A stretch of DNA of 64,000 bases. Source: Karstenula rhodostoma CBS 690.94. Taxonomy: Eukaryota > Ascomycota > Dothideomycetes > Pleosporales > Didymosphaeriaceae. Where the stretch lies: NCBI GenBank assembly GCA_010093485.1, contig MU001499.1:1751397-1815396 (forward strand), given 5' to 3'. Each line of letters begins with the position of its first letter. The first letter of the stretch is position 1. Made by a program: the position numbers and the translations under genes. The notes below the pieces were generated by a model. That model had not been told where the DNA came from and made no database searches. It saw only the letters and a list, made by a program, of their open reading frames with translations. Shown one piece after another: positions 1 through 61,346 of the stretch.

Positions 1-1450
1 TTTCGTAGTTCCCCAACCACGTCAAACGCCCCATTAGCGCGTACGCTAGATATAAATACCCCCACCCGACTTTCTCTTCTCTCTACACACTCACATCGAG
101 CTCCTAGTCTGGGACTAGAAAGCAATCCCAGCTGGCTCTATGGCTTTTCTCGCGGTTCAAAAGATGGCGCGGGTGGCTCTTATGGGCTTGCCAAAACCTC
201 AGAAATACATTGTTGTGTTATCTTTCCTCTGCACACATGTATACTCGGTTCCCGGTTTGGGACTAAAAGGCCCATTGGGAGAAACTATGGTCGTGCTCTC
301 GCGGCCGTGATATCTCGAGGAAATCCACCCATAGGCTTGCTAAACCCTCAAAGATGCGACCTAAATGGGCTGTCTCTTTTTGCTACAGACGCACATCTAG
401 TTTCCAGACTGTGAATAAAAACCGGAGCGAGACCCGTTCGTGGTTGTGCTCTCGCGGTCTAAATTCATAAGTGATGGCCGACATGGGCTTGCCAAAACCT
501 GAATAACGCCTACCTCATGGGCTGTCCAGCAGGGGAAGCCGCCGTTATCTGTGGAGTAGGAACATGTAAAACAGCGCGAGCCTCCTTTATGGGATTCGTT
601 CCGCACTCATCGTTTTAAAGCAGAGGCAGTAGCAAATTGATTTGTTGGAACTTGGATGATGCTTTATCTATGGGCTGTCTAAAAGAAGACACGGTACACT
701 TCATGGGTTGGGTTGTGTCAAATTGCGCAGGACTCCTTCACGGTGTTCTTTCTAAATTCCTAAAACAACGCACGGAAATCGGCCTCGTGCCTTGCTCGCG
801 GGCTAAGAAACCCACAATGCCACCCATGGGTTGCCGAAAGTAGAGGCCACCAGTGTTCATGGAGGTGTATTGTATACGATCACTATGGGGGCGGGTAAAT
901 CAATGAAGCTAGGGGGACAAAAAGGCGCGTTGTGCTTTGCTAATGCACGAACAAAAGGGGATCAAAAAAGCGGCTAAGGCTTGCCCAGCGTCTGTGCGCA
1001 GGCTAACCAAAAAGGGCATAGCGCCAAGCGATCCGAAACGGGACTAGCGCGAGGCTAGCCGATCATGGAGGTGTTTGTATAAAACTGCGCGGGCTTCGTT
1101 TATGGGGTGCATTCTGCCTTCACGGGCTCTTCAAAAATTATAAACCCCAAGGATCATGGGGTGAGGTATGCATGAATGTGCAGGTCTCATCTGTGGGGTT
1201 CGGCTTCTAACTTCAGGGGAAAAGCTACCGAGTAATGTCATTCTGATGGGATGTCACCAGCCCATATTTTTGTCTATCACTTTGCGGGACACCACTTTGT
1301 GGTTCGTGTCAACAATCAGAAGGTCATCTTGGATGTCACAAAGACGCCACCGATGATACTCATGGACTGGTATCGCGTAGAAGCTACACAGGATCTGATT
1401 CATGGGGTCGTTTTAGGGTTGGTGGGAAACACTACCACCGGAGAGATGGC
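1..1450. repeat. Decayed tandem repeat, period about 151 bp
   Basis: Recurrent motifs show the period. A GGGCTTGCC-AAACC motif occurs near 180, 331 and 483 (spacing 151 and 152). A TGGGCTGTC motif occurs near 368, 519 and 670, with a related TGGGTTGCC near 822. CTCGCGG occurs near 147, 298 and 450. Units become hard to align after about 870 but related pieces (CATGGAGGTGT, AAACTGCGCGGGCTTC) continue to about 1450. Short ORFs here are unconvincing and I see no gene. The units differ by scattered substitutions, so this is an old array and not a fresh expansion. Confidence 0.7.
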
Positions 1451-4247: not shown

Positions 4248-4617
4248 GTGCTTCGCGCGTGTGGTATTGTGTGCTGGACTTGATTCGGATAGAGTGTGCG
4301 TGTCGATCGATATTTGGTGTCGACACTTTCTGTACATACAATATCAAATTTGAAATTTGATACTTCGCGCGCTTGGGCAAGCCGCGCTGTACATACAATA
4401 TTCCTACATACCTGTTTCAAAACGTACAAATGCGACAGCGGTCTGCGCCGACATTCCGTGCTCCATAATGGTGCGATCCCGACACGTAGTGCTCCCGATA
4501 ATGGTCAAGGCGATGCTGAGCCTAACGCCGAAATATCCAACCCAGCCCTGATGCCCTAAACGCCAGCCCATCGATGCCGTCTGAAAGAAAGAAAGAACTT
4601 TTGGTGGTATTAAAGTC
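4248..4617. other. Intergenic region between GH71 and PC4 genes
   Basis: Convergent 3' regions of two genes. The only structured feature seen is the short retroposed insertion at 4330-4401; otherwise I see nothing. Confidence 0.6.
4330..4401 (-). mobile_element. Ultra-short retroposon copy A, with flanking duplications
   Basis: A 42-bp insert (4345-4386) lies between two identical 15-bp direct repeats, CTGTACATACAATAT, at 4330-4344 and 4387-4401. Read on the minus strand, the insert starts exactly at the base of the shared hairpin (CGCGGCTT-GCCC-AAGC-G-CGCG) and ends in a doubled CAAATTT tail. It is shorter at the 5' end than the copies at 27.7 and 61.3 kb, which fits incomplete reverse transcription. 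It has no coding capacity. Confidence 0.75.
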
Positions 4618-10000: not shown

Positions 10001-12734
10001 GATGTAGAATGCTTTCAAATGTGTATCTCAATGTGGTAAAGTTGGGTATAAGAAAAGACTGTGAATGGAGTACCTCGCAGAGAGTACTGTAGAGCGAATG
10101 GACGTAAAGCTACCCTTTCGGGATGAAGCCCTAGGGCAAAAGAATGACTGAATGAAAAAAGAGAGAACGCAACACACCCAAGTGCAATGCAAAAAGCCTG
10201 TGAGATCACGTCCAGCCCGGGAGGCAACGGCGTTTGTATAATGTCCTCATGGCGGCGCAGTAGGCTACTGGCTGATGATCCACCGGACAAGATCCTGCTC
10301 GGTATTGCTTGCGTCCATCTGAACCAAAGTCCATCTTACAGGGTATACGCCCCAGGGCTCGAGCTAGCCAATGTGCGAACTGGATGCCCTACAAAATGCC
10401 ATGCGCAGGCCCGTTTCATGGGTCCGAAACGAGATTAGCGCAAAGGGCAGAACGTCCGGAGGCACGGTCGGACGCATGCTCACGACAGCTATTATTGGGC
10501 CGAAGTGGGTCGCTGTAGGAAACAGGTACACTAATGGAGAAAGGATGAAAGATCAAACGTGAGCGATCTCTGCGGCTTCCATGCGCGCTTCGGAGCTAGT
10601 GGTGAATAGGGTCAAGTGCACTCGCTTCGTCTGCCATGCGGGGTCTGGGGCTGAGAACCCCGACCCTTCAACTTTGCAAACCCGACGACACAGCGATGTC
10701 AAGAATACTGTCAACACGCCGTCGCATGGCTGATTGGTTTTCCTACATCCATGCTTCTCATTGTGATCTCACCTAGGAAATGCTTTGCTCGCTATCAACA
10801 GTTGGCAGCAGCGTAACAGTGCCGGACCAGCCAAACCTTCGGACATGGCGCCGCCACCGCCGTCGGACTTCGCAGGCTCATCTTAGCTGTCCTTCACTCG
10901 CCTGCCACATTTATATCTCCGGTCGGATAAGCCTGCCCCGCCTGGGCCATCTAATCTCCATAGCTTTCGACCATGCAACCCCATCGCGCCATGCGTTTCG
11001 CACAGCCTCCTTGCATCTTCCCATTCGCGACATAAACCTTCTTATCCAGCGGCCCTCCGCCGTTTCACACGGTGCTCACTCAGAATGCGAAATCGCGAAG
11101 CATCTCCCCTGTTAGGATGTTGAAGATCGGCTTACATCCGCAGACCTGCCGTGCGCCAACATGGCCTTGCAACGTTGGTACCTCCGCCAAGCTCAGGCAG
11201 GAAATTCTAGAGGTGATTTCGAACCTTTCTCCACATCAGATAGACACGGGCGCCATGGCGATGACCTCCTCGAGACCGACTCGACGAAATTTCTACTGCA
11301 CGAATTCTTGGCGTGCCATCCCGGACTTCATCTGGCCCCAGGGTGACCTTGGCTGAGATGTCACGGCACTTGGCGACTGCGCTCACGTGCTTGTGCGGAC
11401 TTCGCATTGCGCATAGACACTTGGTCGCACCGTGTATGGGAAATGTCCGTAACTTTGTTGAACGTTGTTGCTCTTGAAAATGAGTGAGATTGTCCAAAGC
11501 GCCCAATACGAAGCTTCATAAGCATACCGTATAATTTCACCGATAAGGGCTCCGACCGTCTATACGACCTAGCTCTATTAGAAGTAGTATCTACCCATGA
11601 AAGAGTAGTCCTTCTTTTTTTAAGTAGTTTTTACCTTTTAGAAAATACCTTTTACTTTTCAGAAGATAATATATATTTTAGCTATACGTAAAAAGCTATA
11701 CCTTACTTTAGAAGGCTAATATTCTAGATGGTGAGAAACCCTATCAGTGAAACTATGCCGCGGCTTATAGAAGTTCGCGAAGAGTTAACAGTTAATCGGT
11801 GAAACTATACAGTAGTTCCCTATAAGCTAACAGCATTTGATACACTCCGCAAGCGATTACCGTAATTATTACTAATACTCCCACTATATAGCGCTTGTTC
11901 ACCCACCAAGCGTAGCTTTACGGCGAGCTTTCCAGTGCGGTAGAAGTCCTCGCATCCACCCCGTTAGCTGGCATCATCGTGTGGGAGGGGAGCTGGAGTT
12001 TCAATATAGGGGTTTAATATGTGGATTTAATATGTGAATTTAACCTGGGGAGTAAAGGTAGAGACTAGGCCTAGGACTTTAATGCGCGGGGTTGAGCTGT
12101 AGACTCGAGGTGTATGATTAACCTGATGTTTACTTTTAGTATGTAACCCACTACTATCCAACCTACTAACCCCCAACCTCCCAGCCTCCCATTCTTTACC
12201 CATCCAACCTCCCACCACCCATCCCCCACTATCAAACCAAACCTACCCTCCTCACCTACGCACCCCACCACCCCCCAACGCACTACCATCCCCGATTAAT
12301 GAATCCCAACCATATCACAAACATGCACGAGGAACACAGCCCAACATCCCACACTAGCAAACGCCATTCAGTCCAGTTCAATCCAGTCCAAGTCAATACT
12401 ATTCATTACATACATCATAACCTCATGACATGACTGCATAAAGCCACGGCCCCGCTGCTACTACACCCCATCTCGCCATCTCATCCCATATACACACGTT
12501 CCTTTCTTTCTTTCTTCCAGCCCGTCCCTCGTATGTATCGTACCCAGCTCCAGCCCCTTCTTTCCTATCGTACAAGCCCCACAAAATACTTATCCGAAGA
12601 AGAAAAACAACAACAACGCTGGTATACAAAGGAATTTCCAAAGACAGTAGAAACGGAACGGCATCGCATCGCATGGCGTTGGTATCATGAGCGCAAATCG
12701 AATCACTCACCCCCGCCCCCTGCTCTTCCTCTTC
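10001..12734. other. Intergenic region, 2.7 kb
   Basis: I see no supportable gene; ORFs here are short and without domain motifs. It includes the AT-rich pocket at about 11570-11910 and a small TTTAATATGTGAATTTAA repetition at about 12010-12045. The first few hundred bases upstream of 10000 are the promoter of the large surface protein. Confidence 0.5.
11570..11910. repeat. AT-rich, TA-rich pocket, probably a RIP-decayed repeat
   Basis: The stretch is markedly richer in A, T and TpA steps than its GC-balanced surroundings. It carries two partial direct copies of a TCRGTGAAACTAT motif near 11743 and 11800. No ORF of note survives. In Pezizomycotina such islands are commonly old transposon copies mutated by RIP; no transposon protein can be recognised. 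Confidence 0.45.
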
Positions 12735-21122: not shown

Positions 21123-23010
21123 TTTGGATGTGGTGTGGTTTCAAGGTTTTGTTTTGTTTTGAAGTGGGAGGTTGAGTTGGGGTTGAGGTTGGTGGTAGGA
21201 CCGCTTCAAGATGGGAGGTTGAGGAGTAAGTAGGGTTGGAATGCAGATAGATAGATAGATAGATAGATAGACGGCAAGCTCCTCTTGAAGGTAAGGCAAG
21301 CGTTAAGTATAGAACAGTTGCAGTTGGGTGTGCAGTAGCCCTCAAGTCACCCACACCTTATATACCATACCAACCCCAAACCTATCTATGACTTCAGCTC
21401 TGCACAACCCAGAATCCTACACACCTACCCGCAGCGATCGGTCGCACAGCCAGCACAGCACAGCACGTCACAGGCAACGGACGGATATTACTTCGCACCA
21501 TGCATGGGCGTTGGAGGTAGGCTGCTGCGCAATGACGTCTTGCGGCCCCGGGCCAATCAGCGCTGCGGACCCCATGTTGTCGGGTGCTTGGCGCGTGGTT
21601 AGGGGGCTCGGCGGAGCGCGGAACAAGCCTGCGCTGCTGCGCTGGGCTGAGCTGGAAGCTTGATGACGACAGCCTTGCGCCTGCAGTGTTTCTTCCTGGT
21701 TGGGAGAGAGAATATGCGATGTGTGAGCGGGGGAACAGTGTCTGTGCTTGGGTTGATGCAGGTTCCTTGGATTGAATCGATGAGGCCGTTGACGGCGTGG
21801 CGTTAGGGTGCTCGCTGGTTGGGGTCCGATTCTAGGGGAGCGGATCTGAAGGGCGTCTGGATTACATGGGCAGGGAGTGAGCGCTGTGAAGACGGTGGAA
21901 GGGGGGGTAGTTTCGAAGAGCACACGGCGGCATCTTGGTTGTGGTTGAGTAAGCTTACCTGCTAGGGTCTATGTTGAGATGCATGCAGCAAACTGTGGCG
22001 ATGCTTCTCCCGCGAAATATCATATTGTGCAAGGTCTGACAGTATCCTGAACATTCGGGCGCTGGCTGTCAGGTATGGTTCCGTCCAATATCGCTGCCAG
22101 TCACTAATCTATTAAATTTGCATAAGACAAGAACACATCCCAGGCATAACGGACTCGTTTCTTTTGGCTTGTTCGCACGTGGCTTAGGCAGGAACAACGT
22201 CAGCGCTTTGGGAAATGAAATAATTTGAAAGATGTTGTGCAAAAGCGCGCGAAGAGTCAACAATCGATCGAGACGTGACAGACTCAATGAAATCACTACT
22301 ACTCATGTTAGGACAAACCAACATGTTCCTTGTGATATACCACGGCTAATGTGTATCGACAATAAGGGCGGATGGGGAAAGACGGCGGTAGGTTGGAGGC
22401 CGGAGAGATGATGAGGAAGGTACAAAGTGGAGGCTGAGCTTTGCCTGATCACCCTAGCCGCTTTCGGTGACCCCGCATTTTCGCTTCCAGTATCCACATT
22501 CACGGTCTTTCTCTCCCCACCGCACCTTCCGTCACATCACAAGCCAGAGACGTCCAATAGCTCGGAGTCTAGGGAATAATCTTCTTTGGTCGATTAAGTT
22601 GTTTCGGCGGATGGTTTACCAAGCTCACATGGGCCCAGGCCACCGGTCTTACCGCAACGTCACATACAAGGAAGTAATATACCAGTATATGATCAAGATG
22701 CAACTTCGGAACCAGACCCACCCATGCAAAGGTATTCTGCAGTCTATGACCTGGATGTAAGATATATTGGTTCGTCATTTGACCGTTCATCAAAGTCATA
22801 TTAGCCAGAGCCTGCTGATCTCAACCGTTATTAGTACCGTTCAAATACCTCGCAAAACACGGAGAGGCAATAATTCAAGTAGATTGATGCCGGACCGATG
22901 GATCGTAGGAGATATATGCAGAGATGACCCATGTGGTTGGTGGTTTCGCCGCCAGGCCGCCTTGATCTCACTCTGTGCACCTCAGTAGAGTCAATCGTAA
23001 CGAAACTCCA
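21123..23010. other. Intergenic region, 1.9 kb
   Basis: No supportable gene. It contains an ATAG microsatellite at 21245-21270. The part from about 22700 to 23010 should hold the promoter of the AA9 gene. A 97-codon ORF at 22467-22760 shows no motif and is not called. Confidence 0.4.
21245..21270. repeat. ATAG microsatellite
   Basis: A perfect GATA tetranucleotide run of about 6.5 units upstream of the small Ser-rich gene. It looks intact, unlike the decayed arrays elsewhere in the window, so it is young or length-variable. Confidence 0.85.
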
Positions 23011-27504: not shown

Positions 27505-28199
27505 TTTGCGTTTGCAGTTGTAAAGGGGATGAAGATTTGATTTTTTTACAGTTGGTTGAGGGTTTTTTTCTGGGTTGTTGTCAGAATTCCTGGGTGGGGA
27601 CGTTTTATGTTTACGTGTAAGCAAGTCCTCCACAATGAAGATTACCCTTCAGTTAGGTGGACACAAGACCAAGCATGTATCTTCATTATACACGCACGGA
27701 GATACACCCCGCCGAGTTCCTTTACTGTGTTTTGCCGCGGCTTGCCCGAGCGCGCGAAGTATCAAATTTGACGCACGGAGATAAGGAATGATTCACACGG
27801 TACATTGTTTTTAGATTAGTCTAAAAGAATTATAGAGGGTATCATATCGCCGAGCATATCCTACAAAACGAAGGAAAACCGCCTCGTGTATACACAACAC
27901 AACGTCGGACTGGCGACGCCAAAGCGTTAACGGTACCAAGACAAGCGGCAGCGATACCGGCGCGTCGCATGCAAGTGAGCGCTCGGTAGTACGTCCAGGA
28001 TATGGAATCGCTGCGGCGTAATCAGTACCATGCCCGAGCTCCCTAGCTGCACGAAGACTTACCGCACAAGCTATATCTTGCTCAACACCGCTTCAGTTGC
28101 CCAAGTCTTCGGAAGAAAGAGAGTTTGAGTACATCGTGTTACCCAGGAAAGGCATCACAGTGCCGACACTTGAGATCCAGTACTGGGTGGTGACCTCTC
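27505..28199. other. Intergenic region with retroposon copy B
   Basis: About 700 bp without a gene. The only structured feature recognised is the short insertion at 27692-27783. Confidence 0.45.
27692..27783 (+). mobile_element. Ultra-short retroposon copy B, with flanking duplications
   Basis: A 66-bp insert (27705-27770) lies between identical 13-bp direct repeats, ACGCACGGAGATA, at 27692-27704 and 27771-27783. It shares its first 38 or so bases almost perfectly with copy D at 61.3 kb (one difference) and its 3' half with all other copies. The hairpin is CGCG-GCTT-GCCC-GAGC-G-CGCG at 27736-27756. The 3' end is AAGTATCAAATTTG. No coding capacity. Confidence 0.8.
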
Positions 28200-61001: not shown

Positions 61002-61066
61002 TTTCCTCGTTCATCAAATATGATACTTCACGAGCTTCTTGAAGCCGCGGCAATTTCCTGGTTCAT
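61002..61066 (-). mobile_element. Ultra-short retroposon copy C, with flanking duplications
   Basis: A 39-bp insert (61015-61053) lies between 13-bp direct repeats TTTCCTCGTTCAT (61002-61014) and TTTCCTGGTTCAT (61054-61066), differing at one base. Read on the minus strand it begins TTGCCGCGGCTT, so it is shorter at the 5' end than copies B and D. Its hairpin is CGCG-GCTT-CAAG-AAGC-T-CGTG and it ends ATCATATTTG. Confidence 0.75.
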
Positions 61067-61246: not shown

Positions 61247-61346
61247 GTTTACTTATGGTCTTTGGCACCCCACCGAGTTCCTTTACTGTGTTTTGCCGCG
61301 GCTTCCAGAAGCTTGCGAAGTGTCATATTTGGTTTACTTATGGTCT
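61247..61346 (+). mobile_element. Ultra-short retroposon copy D, longest copy
   Basis: A 70-bp insert (61262-61331) lies between identical 15-bp direct repeats GTTTACTTATGGTCT at 61247-61261 and 61332-61346. It is the longest copy seen, starting TTGGCACCCCACCGAG, four bases further 5' than copy B. The hairpin is CGCG-GCTT-CCAG-AAGC-T-TGCG at 61297-61317 and the end is GTCATATTTG. It lies 0.2 kb from copy C in the opposite orientation. Confidence 0.8.

What the first reader, a model, noticed from the sequence alone, without database searches (positions are those of the whole stretch)
61247..61346. A family of 39-70 bp insertions, each with its own 13-15 bp target duplication
Four loci (4345-4386, 27705-27770, 61015-61053, 61262-61331) carry the same short sequence. 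Each is bracketed by a different direct repeat: 15 bp identical, 13 bp identical, 13 bp with one mismatch, and 15 bp identical. Variable-length duplications, a constant 3' end (ATTTG) and 5' ends at different points are the marks of target-primed reverse transcription, as for LINEs and SINEs. The unit is far shorter than typical SINEs and has no visible tRNA-like boxes. Either these are all truncated tails of a longer element, or it is a very small retroposed RNA. I know of no description of such an element.
Basis: partly seen in the sequence, partly recalled or inferred. Interest (0 to 1): 0.88.

Follow-up and report, generated by a model that had tools for sequence, protein, structure and literature searches.

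The report
Tiny retroposons from a spliced RNA
Short scraps of DNA scattered through this (probably fungal) genome are cut-short copies of an RNA about 250 letters long, pasted in by a LINE-like copying machine; the one locus that looks like their source still carries introns that the pasted copies lack, which suggests that a spliced, apparently non-coding RNA became a mobile element.

Summary
The 3' hairpin core has 561 matches in the 44-Mb genome against 0 for the reversed pattern. Of 20 exact-core copies fetched without regard to length, 14 have strong flanking duplications against 1 of 600 mispaired controls. The 3' end is fixed, 5' ends vary (29-246 nt), duplications are mostly 13-15 bp, and the cut site is T|A with a T-rich stretch about ten bases upstream. 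One insertion has gap-free empty sites. This is target-primed reverse transcription.
The tiny copies are 5'-truncated pieces of an element of about 246 nt: 14 of 15 longer copies continue into the same non-LINE sequence. One locus (C17) carries that sequence split by three GT-AG introns absent from the other copies compared, and copies differ exactly at those junctions. So the source is most likely a spliced RNA recognised by its 3' hairpin, without poly(A) and without detected tRNA or Rfam features. A second short family (326 matches) shares the duplications. The partner LINE was not identified. A new variant of SINE/processed retrocopy.

The parts
4330..4344 (.). Copy A, left target-site duplication CTGTACATACAATAT
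   Evidence: sequence
4345..4386 (-). Copy A, 42-nt insertion (hairpin and 3' tail; tail partly duplicated)
   Evidence: profile match 4353-4386
4387..4401 (.). Copy A, right target-site duplication (15/15)
   Evidence: sequence
11743..11756 (.). Copy E, left target-site duplication ATCAGTGAAACTAT
11757..11794 (+).
   Evidence: profile E 1.3e-05; repeat
11795..11808 (.). Copy E, right target-site duplication ATCGGTGAAACTAT (13/14)
22238..22266 (+). Possible sixth copy F, 29 nt, no flanking repeat seen
   Evidence: profile E 0.0074
27692..27704 (.). Copy B, left target-site duplication ACGCACGGAGATA
   Evidence: sequence
27705..27770 (+). Copy B, 66-nt insertion
27771..27783 (.). Copy B, right target-site duplication (13/13)
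   Evidence: sequence
61002..61014 (.). Copy C, left target-site duplication
   Evidence: sequence
61015..61053 (-). Copy C, 39-nt insertion
61054..61066 (.). Copy C, right target-site duplication (12/13)
   Evidence: sequence
61247..61261 (.). Copy D, left target-site duplication GTTTACTTATGGTCT
   Evidence: sequence
61262..61331 (+). Copy D, 70-nt insertion
61297..61317 (+). Conserved 3' hairpin in copy D: CGCGGCTT-CCAG-AAGC-T-TGCG
   Evidence: alignment of 51 distinct tails; position
61332..61346 (.). Copy D, right target-site duplication (15/15)
   Evidence: sequence
1258..1321 (+). Copy of the second short family (ACCACTTTGTGGT hairpin, end GTCAACAATCAGAA); flanking repeat only imperfect, by eye

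Best explanation
The insertions are 5'-truncated copies of a small non-autonomous retroposon of about 246 nt, inserted by target-primed reverse transcription by a LINE-type enzyme. The enzyme nicks at T|A, starts copying at a fixed 3' end marked by a conserved hairpin (not poly(A)), usually falls off within about 30-150 nt, and leaves the copy between 13-15 bp duplications. The template is most likely a spliced, apparently non-coding RNA made at the C17 locus (C17:1027329-1028300, minus strand) or relatives of it. SHOWN here: family, fixed 3' and variable 5' ends, duplications, target motif, one empty site, the longer form, the three GT-AG inserts of C17 that the other copies compared lack, and copy differences at the same junctions. 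INFERRED: that C17 is transcribed and spliced, that it or a close relative is the source, that transcription is by Pol II, that the hairpin is what the enzyme recognises, and that a LINE supplies the enzyme.
For: Duplications: 45/75 copies vs 6/750 mispaired; 14/20 vs 1/600. Target, from 48 copies with score >=9: A at +1 in 40, T at -1 in 28, T at -11..-9 in 25-27; 37 of 45 duplications with at most one mismatch are 13-15 bp; insert lengths 29-246, 41 different ones. Empty site: joined flanks of the C5:118664 insertion match three other places without a gap and a fourth (window 1258-1321) with two gaps. Of 15 duplication-bearing copies longer than 105 nt, 14 match the same head sequence. C17 has three inserts of 49, 48 and 47 nt, GTAAGT..TAG, GTGAGG..TAG and GTAAGT..CAG, which the 11 other sequences aligned lack wherever they cover the site; an 850-base stretch holding two of the introns and nearly all of the third matches elsewhere only at exon pieces. 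Seven copies reaching the first exon fall into states GAAT|exon3 (4), GAAT|exon2 (2), GAATGTCA|exon2 (1), i.e. exon skipping and two donors 4 nt apart, at C17's intron positions. C17 has no convincing flanking duplication (best score 8 in 6.3 kb upstream), and its last 95 nt differ by one base from five copies that are identical to each other over 88-95 nt. tRNA and Rfam searches empty.
Against: No transcript evidence. 30 of 75 copies, and 6 of 20 in the second sample, lack a strong duplication. C17's first-exon motif differs at two bases from the form in four other copies, so it is not the direct source of the older copies. Exon-2-less copies could be a subfamily with a deletion. One copy (L065) carries an extra 76-nt stretch in the third exon; it is flanked by a 12-nt near-repeat (11/12), so I read it as a later insertion, but it was not identified. 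A sequence GATCGAAT weakly recalls a Pol III B box (recalled consensus, not modelled). No LINE was proven to end in this tail. The hairpin: RNAalifold with default scoring gave no structure, and with ribosum scoring the stem (-22.9); three of four tails folded singly show it; the stem hardly varies, so covariation gives little support.
Confidence: 0.75

Rival explanations
1. The insertions are dead 3' ends of an autonomous LINE whose 3' UTR is this ~95-nt tail, for example the C4 LINE.
For: The C4 LINE (1243 aa read; Exo_endo_phos_2 and RVT_1) has the tail starting 17 nt after a stop codon, same strand. 10 of 48 insertions are 88-95 nt long, the length of that shared stretch.
Against: 14 of 15 duplication-bearing copies longer than 105 nt continue into the C17-type head, not LINE coding sequence (the fifteenth, L017, is a doubtful repeat call). 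The C4 coding end has no other match in the genome. The C4 tail is itself flanked by a likely decayed duplication (12 of 15 bases), as if inserted there. No tail was found within about 2-3 kb downstream of the other three LINE-like loci (C17, C20, C26).
Confidence: 0.12
2. An ordinary unspliced, perhaps Pol III-made, SINE; the C17 copy gained introns after insertion, as part of a host gene.
For: Size ~246 nt, tail hairpin, duplications; GATCGAAT resembles a B-box core (recalled). Only one locus with the introns was found.
Against: Needs three separate gains of GT-AG introns inside ~250 bp, with no match elsewhere; does not explain why intron-free copies vary exactly at C17's splice sites; C17 has no convincing duplication; no tRNA or Rfam match.
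Confidence: 0.11
3. Filler DNA from double-strand-break repair, or a MITE-like DNA element.
For: Short size; hairpin.
Against: Fixed 3' end with 41 distinct lengths among 48 copies, regular duplications and a sequence-specific target.
Confidence: 0.02

Closest known systems
MINE / WEIRD chimeric retroelements of Magnaporthe grisea (PMC2104539; abstract, Background and two Results sections read)
   Same: Fungal retrocopies of a non-coding RNA with 10-20 bp duplications, made by LINE machinery.
   Different: MINE joins full-length WEIRD to MGL LINE ends truncated at varying sites; here the 5' end varies, the head-to-tail join is constant in most copies, no LINE coding sequence was seen joined, and many copies are tens of nt long. 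In the sections read no intron-bearing WEIRD source is described (no solo WEIRD copy was found).
SINEs of fungi (Mg-SINE, AfuSINE2/3; PMC5063351, abstract start in a listing and passages read)
   Same: Short, non-autonomous, dispersed, with target duplications.
   Different: Those are tRNA- or 5S-related; here no tRNA or Rfam match was found and the likely source looks spliced.
SINE/LINE pairs with a stringent 3' stem-loop (Ohshima review PMC3747384, passages read)
   Same: Fixed 3' end with a hairpin instead of poly(A).
   Different: The LINE partner with the matching tail was not established here.
Processed pseudogenes / retrogenes (same review, passages)
   Same: Intron-free copies of an intron-bearing locus with duplications.
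   Different: No poly(A); hundreds of copies; no evident coding sequence (by eye).
Ylli LINE fragments of Yarrowia lipolytica (PMC5014426, passages read)
   Same: 104 fragments of 30 bp-1 kb in a fungus: very short LINE-made pieces are known.
   Different: Ylli fragments are pieces of the LINE itself; Ylli is associated with poly(A) tracts and no target duplications were identified.

Membership tests
SINE (canonical) | short, dispersed, non-autonomous, target-site duplications | tested here: met
SINE (canonical) | 5' part from tRNA, 5S or 7SL RNA with Pol III promoter | tested here: not met
   ARAGORN 0 genes and Rfam 0 matches on window and 8 loci; a cryptic A/B box was not modelled
SINE (canonical) | 3' tail shared with a partner LINE | tested here: inconclusive
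   C4 LINE carries the tail after a stop codon but probably as a separate insertion
LINE 3' truncations | longer copies extend into LINE coding sequence | tested here: not met
   14 of 15 longer copies carry the C17-type head; C4 coding end single
Processed retrocopy | copies lack introns of an intron-bearing source | tested here: met
   splicing itself not observed
Processed retrocopy | 3' poly(A) tract | tested here: not met
   duplication follows the fixed tail directly
MINE-type chimera | full-length RNA joined to a LINE end truncated at variable points | tested here: not met
   two of 12 aligned sequences (L034, L057) do have lost middles
DNA transposon / MITE | two fixed ends | tested here: not met
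   5' ends vary, 41 lengths in 48 copies
DNA transposon / MITE | terminal inverted repeats | not tested
   none seen by eye; no search made on the copies
Target-primed reverse transcription | fixed 3' end, 5' truncation, endonuclease-like target motif, duplications | tested here: met

The most novel reading that the evidence does not exclude
A SINE-scale retroposon family that arises from an alternatively spliced, apparently non-coding (presumably Pol II) RNA, recruited by a LINE enzyme through a 3' hairpin rather than poly(A); dispersed copies keep a fossil record of splice isoforms, and a second, unrelated short RNA family uses the same machinery in the same genome.
Probability: 0.55. Interest if true: 0.75.

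Novelty: new variant of a known kind. Interest (0 to 1): 0.62.

Why it matters
SINEs are usually explained by Pol III genes that carry their promoter along. If this family comes from a spliced RNA, its copies lack a promoter, so the family must be fed by one or a few source loci. That makes the birth of a short retroposon, the rule by which the enzyme picks RNAs (hairpin against poly(A)), and past splice choice directly testable in a small genome. It also warns that insertions of 30-100 bp with duplications, easily missed by repeat annotation (my inference), can be numerous.

Tried and rejected
Pol III origin: tRNA and Rfam searches empty. C4 LINE as source: its coding end matches nothing else and the tail there looks separately inserted. 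Other RT loci: the C20 (L069), C26 (L071) and C17 LINE-like loci show no tail within about 2-3 kb downstream; all four LINE-like loci are read in more than one open stretch. C15 (L070) looks like TERT and C19 (L072) like a domesticated rvt-type gene (both from recall, untested). Most other RVT_1 hits, full of TAA/TAG stops, were taken as decayed Gypsy-type elements by their ~450-nt match length (inference). A look at whether longer copies carry more C>T/G>A changes gave 31 of 101 changes (9 long copies) against 15 of 27 (10 short ones), i.e. no support for the idea that repeat-induced mutation selects for shortness; copies without a duplication or with more than 25 changes were left out. One search was uninformative because minus-strand loci were not turned round; later calls correct this. 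Pattern GTCCAATTCAGATCGAAT gave 9 matches against 15 for its reversed control, so its count means nothing; seven matches plus C17 were accepted on their flanking sequence, one (L114) rejected. First-exon copies were sought only through that motif and the query. One search's duplication for C9:353378 (22 bp, 154-nt insert) is probably an older tandem repeat; one search shows a 14-bp one next to a ~63-nt insert; it is the one miss. In one search copy A scored only 6 because its tail is doubled. DNA searches scored only the best candidates, so lists of copies are lower bounds. Library searches showed in their listings no description of this family; the library holds only open-licence PMC papers.

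Full report
Check of the observation. The four insertions and their flanking repeats were read from the window at the stated coordinates. A profile made from 60 copies outside the window recovers all four, a fifth with a 14-bp repeat (13/14) at 11757-11794, and a weak sixth at 22238-22266. The window lies in a 44.3-Mb, 29-contig genome. I infer a fungus from its size, small introns and stop-riddled retroelements; the species is not known to me.

Genome-wide family. A 27-base pattern for the hairpin core, two mismatches allowed, has 297 + 264 = 561 matches against 0 for the reversed pattern. Four of the five clear window copies fit this pattern, so the full number is probably somewhat higher. 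From 68 loci and the window, 75 distinct copies were collected. This set is biased towards copies resembling D or long copies, so 20 more were fetched from the 100 exact-core matches listed, picked by hand along contigs C1-C4 without regard to length. These are biased towards well-preserved cores.

Duplications. Scoring the best repeat between the base after the 3' end and the upstream flank, 45 of 75 copies reach score 10 or more, against 6 of 750 pairings with the flank of another copy. In the second sample 14 of 20 do, against 1 of 600. The rest do not; divergence or rearrangement are possible reasons, not tested. Among 48 copies with score 9 or more, the first base of the duplication is A in 40, the base before the nick is T in 28, and positions -11 to -9 are T in 25-27; 37 of the 45 duplications with at most one mismatch are 13-15 bp; insert lengths run from 29 to 246 nt, with 41 different lengths.

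Empty site. Of 48 sites with flanks joined in a script, one (C5:118664) matches other places: without a gap in L057 on C3 (97.5% over 80 bases), in L043 and at the C13 place (L061/L064/L067), and with two gaps at window 1258-1321. All other spanning rows were matches to the site's own filled locus. The matching places are copies of a second short family, into which this copy had inserted. The reverse nesting also exists: in L115 a copy of the second family sits inside a first-family copy between two ATGACCTTTGAGC.

What the longer copies are. Of 15 duplication-bearing copies longer than 105 nt, 14 match one shared head, represented by C17's exon pieces and three other copies; the fifteenth is the doubtful C9:353378. 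The longest homology starts at CCGAATTGTGAGC in L060 and L061, which have different flanks. L060 is 246 nt between its duplications; L061 has no duplication that I found, so its start rests on where the similarity ends. No tRNA and no Rfam family was found in eight long-copy or source loci or in the window.

The intron-bearing locus. In the alignment of 12 sequences the C17 locus is interrupted three times: after GAATGTCA, after CATCGCAC and after CAATGATC. The inserts begin GT, end AG and are 49, 48 and 47 nt. The other aligned sequences that cover a site lack the insert. One of them, L027/L065, has an extra 76-nt stretch shortly after the second site, inside the third exon and flanked by a 12-nt near-repeat, which I take for a later insertion. 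An 850-base stretch of C17 with two introns and nearly all of the third matches the rest of the genome only at exon pieces. Seven copies reach the first exon: four join GAAT directly to the third exon, two join GAAT to the second, and one joins GAATGTCA to the second. In C17 the donor region reads GAATGTCAGTAAGT, so both donors begin with GT. This is what retrocopies of alternatively spliced RNA would look like. C17 shows no convincing duplication in 6.3 kb upstream (best score 8), and its last 95 nt are one base away from five copies that are identical to each other over 88-95 nt; four of these five have perfect duplications. Against C17 as direct source of all: its first exon differs at two bases from the form shared by four other copies. 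Further introns upstream in C17 look likely by eye but have no copies to test them.

How it probably works. The 3' end can fold into CGCGGCTT-NNNN-AAGC-N-CGCG with a variable tetraloop. The evidence is moderate: RNAalifold with default scoring gave no structure, with ribosum scoring a structure of -22.9 in which 40 to 51 of 51 distinct tails keep each pair; three of four tails folded singly show the stem; the stem hardly varies, so covariation says little. With the missing poly(A) and the fixed end this fits an enzyme that recognises a 3' hairpin, as reviewed for stringent LINEs (PMC3747384, passages). Copying then stops early. Two copies (L034, L057) have lost their middle, as if the enzyme jumped within the template. 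Copy A, and the second-family copy in L115, have a doubled tail.

The partner. RVT_1 hits include four LINE-like loci with stop-free RT stretches, C4, C17, C20 and C26, each read in more than one open stretch. The C4 LINE has endonuclease and RT domains and the tail starting 17 nt after a stop codon, but the tail there has a probable decayed duplication, 12 of 15 bases, and the coding end has no other match. The other three show no tail within about 2-3 kb downstream. The partner therefore stays open.

The second family. It ends in AC[CT]ACTTTGT[AG]GTTCGTGTCAACAATCAGAAA; 154 + 172 = 326 matches with three mismatches allowed, control 0. In 20 fetched copies (19 exact, one with a mismatch) 10 have strong duplications against 0 of 600; the 11 with score 9 or more have inserts of 57-124 nt, and 7 of those 11 show T|A at the start of the duplication (counted by eye). 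The ACC..GGT and ACT..AGT forms are both frequent in the listed matches and keep the stem, a compensatory change. GTCAACAATC also ends the older subfamily of the first, which suggests a shared enzyme (inference).

Comparison with print. Very short LINE-made pieces are known in Yarrowia (PMC5014426, passages), fungal RNA-LINE chimeras in Magnaporthe (PMC2104539, abstract and three sections), and tRNA/5S SINEs in fungi (PMC5063351, passages). None of the text read describes a short family from a spliced source without poly(A). The searches behind this statement were made, in one open-licence library.

Verdict. Retroposition by target-primed reverse transcription is close to certain on this evidence; truncation from a ~246-nt element is very likely; a spliced source is the best reading but needs RNA. 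New variant of a known kind.

Noticed in passing
window 1258-1321; genome-wide: Second, unrelated short retroposon family with its own hairpin (ACC..GGT / ACT..AGT) and similar duplications and target.
   Followed up: partly
L115 (C1:2051800-2052400): Second-family copy inserted into a first-family copy between two ATGACCTTTGAGC; the inserted copy has a doubled tail.
   Followed up: partly
L065 (C6, about 1791100): A 76-nt stretch inside a long first-family copy, flanked by TATAAGAGACGT / TATAAGAGACAT: possibly a third kind of short insertion.
   Followed up: no
L068 (C4:2658010) and L031 (C17:1033105): Antisense first-family insertions (61 and 32 nt, 15- and 14-bp duplications) at the start-codon region of the C4 LINE and upstream of the C17 LINE-like frame.
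   Followed up: partly
L034, L057: Copies with an internal deletion joining the head to the last bases of the tail, as if the enzyme jumped within the template.
   Followed up: no
48 copies: 10 of 48 inserts are 88-95 nt and 5 are 60-64 nt, hinting at preferred stop points of reverse transcription.
   Followed up: no
L072 (C19:443301-448500): Long open frame with an RT-like domain (HDDLWFWG) that recalls domesticated rvt genes (recalled, untested).
   Followed up: no
L031, upstream of C17:1028300: Further intron-like GT-AG stretches upstream of the part covered by copies; no copies found that reach them.
   Followed up: no
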